NCBI GenBank assembly: GCA_943736015.1
Contig: OX031065.1
Span: 35,788,427 to 35,852,426 of the forward strand
Source: Tridacna crocea
Taxonomy: Eukaryota > Mollusca > Bivalvia > Cardiida > Cardiidae
Reading direction: 5' to 3'
Length of the DNA: 64,000 bases
Position numbers and translations under genes: made by a program. Below are positions 24,145 to 63,666 of this stretch, in pieces. The first letter of the stretch is position 1; every line of letters starts with the position of its first letter. The notes under the pieces are model-generated. The model was not told the DNA's origin, did no database searches, and worked only from the letters and a program-made list of their open reading frames with translations.

Positions 24145-27100
24145 ATGGATTCGATACAACAGCTGATAACAGCCTGTGAACAAGGGGATGTTCACTCGGC
24201 CCAAGCACTTCTCGAAGAGGGGTTGAATGTAGACATAACTGACGATGAAGAGATGACGCCTATCATGGTGGCTGCTGCTAATGGACATGACCAGGTCGGT
24301 TGTTACTAACGATGATTGCTTGATTCTGTGCCACTTAATACCTTGAATCTGAAAAGGATCCATTCTAAAGTATGTATCTACCAGATTGTATAGCAAAGGG
24401 ATGTCGAAAGATTCGGACCCAAAAAGATTTGGCTTTAGACAGACAAACTATTTTCAAAACGATTCAGCCCTTAAGTTAAGAAGATTTGGCCCTGAGGTTG
24501 GGCAGATTTGGCCCATCATGTTATGTAGTACTTTTAGAAAAATATCTGAAGTAATAGAAATATTTTTTTAAACATCATAGTATCGATTTTGTTTCATAGA
24601 AGTTTTGCAGAACATAATGATGACAATCAGAAATTACCAGTGGTACAGAATTCATGGTAACCTGTATTTCAGAGTGGTATGAGGTACATTAAATATTCAG
24701 TAGCCCTGTTATTTGGCATGTTCTTCTCTACAGTCTTGTTAAGCCTTTTGAAGTGCAATATGGGAATATTGTTTATTTATTCTTCTGATCTTTCATGAGT
24801 TGGGCTTAAATTAAAATGGAGAAAGCAAATATCAATTAAGGATGGTGGGACCAAAACATTTCTATAAAGATTTGCTTGGGCTTAGAGAAATTTGTTTTGT
24901 ATTTGTTAAATGTAAACATTTGCAGGCAAAGAGTTTCAGATGTGCTTACAGTTATCTCGACTTAAGAAGTGTTTTTTGACGAAAAAAATTGTGTTACAAA
25001 ATTACACAGAAAAACAGTAAGTTGACATAAAAACCGAAACAAATATCAGCTTATATATATCTCAATTTAGGTTGATAACCATTGGAATGTATAAAATTTA
25101 CTACAATGTTGTAAAAACTTTTCTGTCAGTCTGGCACACACTGAAACAATGCAAGATTTTGACAAAGTTAACAAAGGTCAAAGGTTGCAGAGGTAGGACA
25201 GGGGCTCAGTTAGGGTACACACTAACTGACTGCATATCCGCTTTGATTTTTCATGTTTTCCATTATCATTGTAGGCAATTTAATCCTCACTGCTTTTGAG
25301 AACGCTCCTCACTGAAACTGATCATGATCTTTACTTTCTGCAAAGGCATCTACAGTTGTAGAGGTTCTTTCAGTCTTTACCAGATAACAAAATTCTAGAC
25401 TTGTCCAAATTAGGGAAAAAATTGCAGAGAGCAAATGAAATGTTGCCCGAGAGACCAAATTTGTCCTTAATAGGATAGAAAACAATTTTGTAACAAGTGG
25501 ATAATACTGATTACCATCATTATCTCTTTTTCCTACAGTATTTTCAAAAGCAGTTCTTCTCAGGTAGAATTATATCTCAAAGGGTTCAGGCATTTCTGGA
25601 AATGGCCACCAGCCCAATTTGGAAAATTAATTCATCAAGATTGATGTGTGATAGGCTGATGGCCATGTTTTGGTTTGGAACTTTGTATTTGTAGCTGCAC
25701 AGGTGGATTATGTTGCCATAGTGTTCTCTAAATTTAAGAGCTATGCATTTGTTGCAAAATTTCATGTTTGTCAGAATATTTTAAAAATTGTCATTTGGCT
25801 TATCGATATTCACTTGATGAAATCAAAGGAATAAAGATTCTTTTAACCCTTTATCTGATATGCCAATTTGAGGCTCTTCCATTTCAGCAGCAAATAAAGA
25901 TATGATGTCAGAAATATGGACAAATGAGGATACAAATATCTGATTGAGTGGAAAACATTGTGGGAAAAGGAGAAATTGCTCTTTATGAGCAATTTCTCCT
26001 TTTCCCACAATGTTTTCAAAAGCTGTCTTTTGTTGATGCATCATAATGGGTATCTATGGAGTAAAGGGTAAAGAATCACTGTTCCTTTGTCCCAGCTTTT
26101 TTGCATAATACTTGCTTTTATGGGAATCAATTTGAGTGTGAAATTTTTGCTAAATGGTAACAGAAACATGAACATGGAGATCTATAATTTGATTTGTTGA
26201 AGCAAGCTAAACTCACCTGACAACAGCATAGTTGAAGCAAGCGAAGGCCTATCAAAAAATATCTCTATTTATGGTTTTTTGACCTTACCTAGAAAATGCT
26301 ACCTACCCAAAACTTTTTAAGCTGCAAAAAAAAAATCTGTCAGTGTGATTTCTGTACATGTTACATGTAAAAAGTTTCTGGGCAACAAAAAATCCCTACC
26401 TACCCTACAGTACCTACAGCATCTTAGACCTAAATCCTAAACATATGTATTTTTTTTAGGCCTTACTTAGCTGACAACCACAGGGTTTATATTTGACAAT
26501 GTGCAACTGTCAGCTTAGCTCCAAGGTTACAACATCAAGGGATGTGATTGAGAATCAGAATTATTTTTCAATGTTTACTACACATATTTACAGAAGTGGC
26601 TTAACTCTTTACCGCACAATTCCGACTTTTAACGACCCTGAGACCCTGGTAACAAGCATGTTCTCCTTTTCCCACAATTTTTTCTTCCCTTCACAAAACA
26701 AATTTCAAATTTTCAGTCACTTTTATTTTGTCATCTGCAAATGCTTTTGATTTGGACAAACCTAAAATTTTGTCGTTTGGTGAGTTAACCCATTACCACA
26801 CGACAAAGTTTTAGACTGGTTCAAATTGAAAGCATTTGCAGACGACAAAATAAAGTTGACTGAAAAATTGAAATTTGTTCTGGAAAGGGTAGAAAACACT
26901 GTGGGAAAAGGAGAAAATGCTGGTTACAAGCATTTTCTCCTTTTCCCACAGTGTTTTCTAAAGGCTTCTTTCTCAGGGGCGTCAAAAGTAGGGATTGTGT
27001 GGTAATGGGTTAAAGGCTCAGTAGTGGCCAAAAGTAAACAATACAGGTGTTAAAATGCATCTGAATTTAGATAATACCTTTTACAAGTAAGGAAATCAAT

Positions 27101-63666: not shown

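What the first reader, a model, noticed from the sequence alone, without database searches (positions are those of the whole stretch)
26785..63039. Hairpin arms change in matched pairs within single copies
Several copies carry the same substitution in both arms: 26785 (CACTGTGGG/CCCACAGTG), 44411 (CATTTTGGG/CCCAAAATG), 46727 (GGGAATAGG/CCTATTCCC), 58094 (GGGTAAAG/CTTTACCC), 58490 (CACTGT/ACAGTG), 62811 (CTTTG/CAAAG). Independent mutation would rarely give this, while flanking blocks in the same copies vary freely. It suggests arm-to-arm templating: gene conversion, hairpin-primed repair, or foldback during transposition. Some copies (for example 34630) show unpaired changes, so correction is not absolute.
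Basis: seen in the sequence. Interest (0 to 1): 0.8.

Follow-up and report, generated by a model that had tools for sequence, protein, structure and literature searches.

The report
Transposon hairpin arms copy each other
A very common small transposon carries a near-perfect hairpin, and matched changes in its two arms turn up in unrelated copies more often than chance allows, so one arm probably sometimes serves as the template for the other, as is known for other short inverted repeats.

Summary
The matched changes are real. The copies belong to a 229-bp, TTAA-flanked MITE with a 34-bp-arm hairpin around one central base, in a 1.05-Gb eukaryote genome. Of the six named copies, 26785 and 58490 carry an inherited subfamily marker; the other four look private among sampled relatives, by weak tests. 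In the window, matched pair cells (40) are far fewer than unmatched ones (346), so the list alone proves little.

Genome-wide pattern counts carry the case. With stem positions 12-26 otherwise consensus, 66,985 hairpins are unchanged. At position 18, 1,575 are changed in one arm and 64 in both (chance 9); 41 of the 50 doubles listed match in type. An off-register control gives 11 matched of 40. At positions 17 and 18, 63 of 68 usable matched copies have a nearest sampled relative lacking the pair. At positions 9 and 30 part of the matched copies are sibling lineages. The terminal repeats show no excess.

Best reading: short-tract arm-to-arm templating of a quasi-palindrome, a known process, affecting about 1-3% of one-arm changes at the two positions measured. 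Replication template switching or repair of the folded hairpin: open.

The parts
26785..27013 (+). 229-bp MITE copy; hairpin 26891-26959 with CACTGT/ACAGTG
   Evidence: Sequence; pair shared by 8 of 9 nearest sampled relatives: inherited subfamily marker
44411..44639 (+). MITE copy; hairpin 44517-44584 with CATTTTGGG/CCCAAAATG (stem position 24, T/A)
   Evidence: 0 of 9 nearest sampled relatives carry the pair
46727..46955 (+). MITE copy; hairpin 46832-46900 with GGGAATAGG/CCTATTCCC (stem position 17, T/A), centre base A
   Evidence: in hairpins that are otherwise consensus at positions 12-26 the same pair occurs 16 times genome-wide
58094..58317 (-). MITE copy; hairpin 58149-58216 with GGGTAAAG/CTTTACCC (stem position 19) plus unmatched changes
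58490..58718 (-). MITE copy; hairpin 58545-58612 with CACTGT/ACAGTG, inherited; nearby positions unmatched
62811..63038 (+). MITE copy; hairpin 62917-62984 with CTTTG/CAAAG (stem position 27); left-arm change shared with 34630, right-arm change private among sampled copies
34630..34858 (+). MITE copy with the left-arm CTTTG change only (one-arm state)
52961..53189 (+). Member of a subfamily whose hairpin differs from the main one by four matched changes (positions 3, 8, 13, 20)
   Evidence: as query it found 40 scored copies, itself and 39 others at 92-93% identity, whose hairpins I did not read; the four matched changes occur in 16, 15, 7 and 8 of 218 copies
36652..36875 (-). Member of the same four-pair subfamily
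50025..50255 (+). Member of the same subfamily; three of the four matched changes scored
25843..26070 (+). Copy with two of the four matched changes (positions 3, 8), a possible intermediate

Best explanation
The thing is the hairpin core of a very abundant 229-bp TTAA-flanked MITE (piggyBac-like ends). After insertion, copies gain ordinary substitutions in single arms. Occasionally the other arm is then resynthesised or repaired with the changed arm as template, because the two arms can pair: by polymerase template switching within the quasi-palindrome, or by repair of a mismatch in the extruded hairpin. The result is a matched change that was not inherited; the reverse outcome, restoration of the old base, is expected but invisible. 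Tracts appear short. A copy with a matched change that later amplifies founds a lineage whose hairpin is again a near-perfect palindrome. Shown: the excess of matched doubles at the stem positions tested, its register dependence, the lack of close kinship at positions 17/18 within the sample, its absence in the terminal repeats, and lineages carrying matched pairs. Inferred: that pairing of arms is the cause, the two-step order, and the enzyme route.
For: Position 18: 66,985 unchanged hairpins, 760+815 one-arm changes, 64 two-arm changes, chance 9.2; 41 of the 50 listed loci match. From the spectrum of 100 listed one-arm changes, chance matched is 3.1 against about 52 scaled up, chance unmatched 6.1 against about 11.5. 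Position 17, A to T: 493+501 one-arm, 16 both, chance 3.7. All doubles at 17: 93, 33 of the 50 listed matched. Position 9: 40 of 50 listed of 235. Position 30: 26 of 36. Control with position 18 of one arm and 17 of the other: 40 loci, 11 matched. With known lineages collapsed on both sides, p is 8e-5, 4e-3, 4e-6 and 0.011 for positions 9, 17, 18 and 30. Kinship: at positions 17/18, 63 of 68 usable fetched matched copies have a nearest sampled relative lacking the pair. Terminal repeats: 19 matched against 18.8 expected. Lineages: position 9 T/A copies with nearest sharing flanks 0-2.5% apart, position 30 G/C copies 1.5-11%.
Against: One-arm changes far outnumber matched ones, so the process is rare. 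In the local sample the excess at non-marker positions is only 1.6-fold, and none is seen at positions 1-11 there (3 against 3.2). Only four stem positions were counted genome-wide, and matched fractions at 9, 17 and 18 rest on the first 50 loci listed. At positions 9 and 30, 8 of 19 usable copies each share the pair with their nearest copy. Matched copies do not have significantly fewer unmatched stem changes than one-arm copies (1.02 against 1.21, p 0.3) nor larger flank distances, so long-tract conversion and a simple two-step clock are not confirmed. The pool used for kinship is a tiny part of the family. No reads were available to exclude assembly errors.
Confidence: 0.8

Rival explanations
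1. Inheritance only: matched variants trace to a few source copies whose hairpins differed, and the apparent single-copy pairs are unsampled subfamilies.
For: Holds for CACTGT/ACAGTG, for the four-pair subfamily and for part of the position 9 T/A and position 30 G/C copies.
Against: At positions 17/18, 63 of 68 usable matched copies lie nearest to a copy without the pair, and they are spread over different flank types. Inheritance also does not explain how source hairpins became matched.
Confidence: 0.09
2. Chance double hits in a very large, partly old family with uneven mutation rates.
For: Can explain many matched changes in the window: the local count without marker positions is 33 against 20.8.
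Against: Uneven age or hot sites raise matched and unmatched doubles alike; in register the matched class is the one raised: 41 of 50 and 33 of 50 listed, against 11 of 40 off register.
Confidence: 0.05
3. Repair of mismatches in the extruded hairpin or cruciform (mismatch or base-excision repair within one strand), with a preference for G/C, rather than polymerase template switching. This is a sub-case of the best explanation.
For: At position 18 T/A is 5 of 41 listed matched pairs but T is 36 of 100 listed one-arm changes (p 0.004); position 30 has 0 T/A among 26 matched. Little sign of long tracts.
Against: Position 17 has 11 T/A of 33 listed matched pairs, and one-arm spectra were not measured there or at position 30. 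A central T-to-A change, as spacer inversion by intermolecular switching would give, is commoner in matched copies than in the background (14 A to 41 T against 16 to 145, p 0.0065), though not significantly more than in one-arm copies (4 to 32, p 0.11).
Confidence: 0.3
4. Selection keeps the hairpin paired (for transposition or as RNA), so compensatory changes are favoured.
For: The four-pair subfamily is matched at its marker positions, which selection on active source copies could also give.
Against: At position 18, 1,575 copies are changed in one arm against 64 in both, and the matched copies are scattered over unrelated flanks. No test of function was made.
Confidence: 0.06

Closest known systems
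Quasi-palindrome (short inverted-repeat) arm homogenisation by polymerase template switching
   Same: Changes that extend identity between arms of an imperfect short inverted repeat, with possible spacer inversion; described in yeast strains by Abraham and Hazkani-Covo (PMC8604942: abstract and found passages seen) and for RNA genes by Monttinen and Loytynoja (PMC8794818: outline with abstract and start of introduction seen).
   Different: Here it is seen in one transposon family with tens of thousands of near-identical hairpins in one genome, mainly as single-base events in the copies examined, and some matched copies belong to lineages.
piggyBac-type MITEs
   Same: TTAA at both ends of 95 of 100 full-length copies with no longer target duplication; ends CYC...GGG next to TTAA (resemblance to piggyBac ends recalled, not tested).
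   Different: No partner transposase was looked for; Kolobok elements also use TTAA (recalled). A long internal hairpin occupies the centre.
Arm-to-arm gene conversion in large chromosomal palindromes
   Same: One arm templates the other (papers seen only in the listing).
   Different: Much longer arms and recombination there (recalled); 34-bp arms with a one-base spacer here.

Membership tests
Quasi-palindrome template-switch or correction hotspot | Changes that make the arms of an inverted repeat match, in excess of chance | tested here: met
   Matched doubles in register against off-register control at four stem positions, and kinship test
Quasi-palindrome template-switch or correction hotspot | Inversion of the spacer in some events | tested here: inconclusive
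   Centre A to T ratio 14:41 in matched copies, 16:145 background (p 0.0065), 4:32 in one-arm copies (p 0.11)
Quasi-palindrome template-switch or correction hotspot | Multi-base tracts copied in one event | tested here: inconclusive
   Other matched changes 7 in 63 matched copies against 3 in 38 one-arm copies; unmatched load 1.02 against 1.21
Quasi-palindrome template-switch or correction hotspot | Dependence on replication or repair genes | not testable with these tools
   Needs mutants
piggyBac-type MITE | TTAA target duplication and nothing longer | tested here: met
   TTAA at both ends of 95 of 100 full-length copies; 0 of 100 with 4 or more further repeated bases
piggyBac-type MITE | Short, high copy number, inverted ends | tested here: met
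   Median length 229 bp; 187 copies or pieces in 200 kb; inverted ends
piggyBac-type MITE | Ends recognised by a piggyBac transposase of the same genome | not tested
   No transposase search was made

The most novel reading that the evidence does not exclude
Hairpin MITEs evolve by matched steps: arm templating turns one-arm mutations into palindromic ones, and such copies seed new subfamilies, so the hairpin stays near-perfect without selection; in addition the templating favours G/C pairs, as biased repair of the folded hairpin would.
Probability: 0.3. Interest if true: 0.7.

Novelty: new member of a known kind. Interest (0 to 1): 0.5.

Why it matters
It offers an explanation of how a transposon hairpin can drift in sequence yet stay paired. 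With about 67,000 copies identical over 30 stem bases in one genome, the family is a natural assay for arm templating: rate per stem position, base bias, tract length and spacer inversion could be measured from sequence alone. It also warns that compensatory changes in a hairpin need not mean selection for an RNA structure.

Tried and rejected
Local statistics alone (218 hairpin-complete copies, 177 with enough flank) gave a modest excess mixed with subfamily markers and could not settle the question; that sample includes L002-L008, brought in by similarity to the 26785 copy, and leaves out L001, which overlaps the window. Each hairpin matched both strands in the first alignment (415 rows); duplicates were removed (342 of 602 kept, 218 hairpin-complete), so the divergence figures are not used. 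Templating between the terminal repeats: no excess. Whole-arm conversion: not supported by unmatched load. Off-register A-to-T doubles of position 17 with 16, 18 and 19: 35 (1,029 minus 994), that is about 6 per pair and arrangement against 16 in register; not used further because one-arm rates at 16 and 19 were not measured. One search failed from a script error. The organism was not identified: four window frames gave ankyrin and weak NHL and B-box matches, one none. Paper searches: (template switch, quasipalindrome, hairpin, MITE, piggyBac, gene conversion, compensatory mutation and GC-biased terms); I saw titles and abstract starts of the listed papers only, apart from the two opened, and among these saw none on arm templating in MITE hairpins. 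This does not show that nothing is in print.

Of matched loci listed, I fetched 16 of 16 T/A and 20 of 22 other matched at position 17, 40 of 41 at position 18, 20 of 40 at position 9 and 20 of 26 at position 30, plus the first 40 of the 100 listed one-arm copies at position 18, all on contig C1. Rows dropped as not usable: 10 of 116 matched and 2 of 40 one-arm copies. Lists stop at 100 rows, so matched fractions at 9, 17 and 18 rest on the first 50 loci in contig order. The 11 of 40 off-register count includes a six-copy lineage; counted once it is 11 of 35.

Full report
What is there. The window lies in a eukaryote-sized genome of 1,048,827,098 bases in 31 contigs. The copies belong to one MITE family: median length 229 bp, TTAA at both ends in 95 of 100 full-length copies, no longer target duplication. 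Its centre is a hairpin of 34-bp arms around one base. I number stem positions k from the centre. The family covers 31% of the window and 16% of 20 arbitrarily placed 10-kb pieces on nine contigs, which hold 187 copies or parts, 115 with complete hairpins.

The named copies. All six matched changes are present. CACTGT/ACAGTG at 26785 and 58490 is a subfamily marker, carried by 8 of the 9 nearest sampled relatives of 26785 (five of them fetched by similarity to 26785). The left-arm T of 62811 is shared with 34630 and two other sampled copies without the right-arm A, so the match probably came later. 44411 and 46727 have pairs absent from their 9 nearest sampled relatives, which are not close. 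58094 has a matched and several unmatched changes. Across 71 window copies, 40 pair cells are matched (19 at marker positions), 346 one-sided or non-matching and 1,927 consensus.

Is it more than chance? Locally: a little. Relative to the consensus of the ten nearest copies, matched changes in register at non-marker positions number 33 against 20.8 expected from off-register pairs (177 elements), and 7 against 1.5 in copies with a relative within 12%. Positions 1-11 show none (3 against 3.2). The terminal repeats, tested the same way, show none (19 against 18.8; 2 against 1.0 in the copies with a close relative).

Genome-wide, yes, at the positions tested. I fixed positions 12-26 of both arms and counted. 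Unchanged: 66,985. At k=17, A to T: 493 and 501 in one arm, 16 in both; independence predicts 3.7. All doubles at k=17: 93. At k=18, all changes: 760 and 815 in one arm, 64 in both; independence predicts 9.2. By type, the first 50 listed loci are matched in 33 (k=17) and 41 (k=18). With other fixed stretches, k=9 has 235 doubles, 40 of the first 50 matched, and k=30 has 36, of which 26 matched. The control pairs k=18 of one arm with k=17 of the other: 40 loci for both arrangements together, 11 matched in type. Fisher tests against that control give p from 2e-7 to 3e-4. With a six-copy lineage in the control and the known lineages at k=9 and k=30 counted once, and two k=17 loci 179 bp apart counted once, p is 8e-5 (k=9), 4e-3 (k=17), 4e-6 (k=18) and 0.011 (k=30). 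Unmatched doubles at k=18 (about 11.5 scaled) are within twofold of the chance figure of 6.1, while matched ones (about 52) are far above 3.1. So age or hot sites alone do not explain it.

Are the pairs inherited? I fetched flanks of 116 matched copies, 106 usable. At k=17 and k=18, 63 of 68 have a nearest sampled copy without the pair; the other 5 share it with copies 12.6-29.3% away. At k=9, 8 of 19 and at k=30, 8 of 19 have a nearest copy sharing the pair, the k=9 group with flanks 0-2.5% apart: lineages founded by a matched copy. The sampled pool is small compared with the family, so hidden relatives are possible; but siblings of k=18 doubles with intact stems would be among the 64 counted, of which 40 matched ones were fetched.

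How it works. The excess depends on register in the hairpin and is not seen in the distant ends, which fits arms pairing with each other. A one-arm change followed by copying or repair of the other arm explains the matched pairs; at k=18 the excess (about 49, scaled) is about 3% of one-arm changes, at k=17 for A to T about 1%. Tract length looks short: matched copies carry 1.02 other unmatched changes against 1.21 in one-arm copies (p 0.3). Flank distance to the nearest background copy is alike (medians 0.153 and 0.150), so age does not separate them. Two hints on the enzyme route are weak and point different ways. At k=18 T/A pairs are 5 of 41 but T is 36 of 100 listed one-arm changes (p 0.004), and k=30 has none in 26, suggesting a G/C preference; k=17 does not show it clearly (11 of 33). 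The centre is A rather than T in 14 of 55 matched copies against 16 of 161 in the background (p 0.0065), but 4 of 36 in one-arm copies (p 0.11), a possible sign of spacer inversion.

Comparison with what is known. Homogenisation of short inverted repeats by template switching is established; PMC8604942 (abstract and passages) reports it in yeast genes, with spacer inversions, and PMC8794818 (abstract and start of introduction) proposes it for RNA stems. This case works like that and meets the main defining feature; spacer inversion and tracts are inconclusive. The MITE itself has a TTAA duplication and piggyBac-like ends (likeness recalled); its transposase was not sought.

Subfamilies. One subfamily (52961, 36652, 50025; 25843 in part) differs from the main hairpin by up to four matched changes, seen in 7 to 16 of 218 copies by position. 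Stepwise templating in source copies would explain this, but so could selection on active copies.

Verdict.

Noticed in passing
18628-18631, 27773-27776, 29470-29473, 34630-34633, 55915-55918, 58715-58718, 60764-60767: At seven places the ends of two neighbouring MITE copies overlap on a single TTAA, as if one inserted into the end TTAA of another. Not tested against chance.
   Followed up: no
window 28132-28791: 219-codon frame with ankyrin repeats (Pfam).
   Followed up: partly
window 6483-8227, minus strand: Two adjacent frames with weak NHL and B-box matches, the B-box one below Pfam's cut-off; TRIM-NHL-like by recall.
   Followed up: partly
L085, L086, L091, L095, L096, L099-L101: A lineage with the matched T/A at stem position 9, nearest sharing flanks 0-2.5% apart, on contigs C1 and C2 among the 20 loci fetched.
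   Followed up: partly
genome contigs C2, C6, C7: Six copies share the same off-register double change and a CATTTCC variant, probably a small inherited lineage.
   Followed up: no
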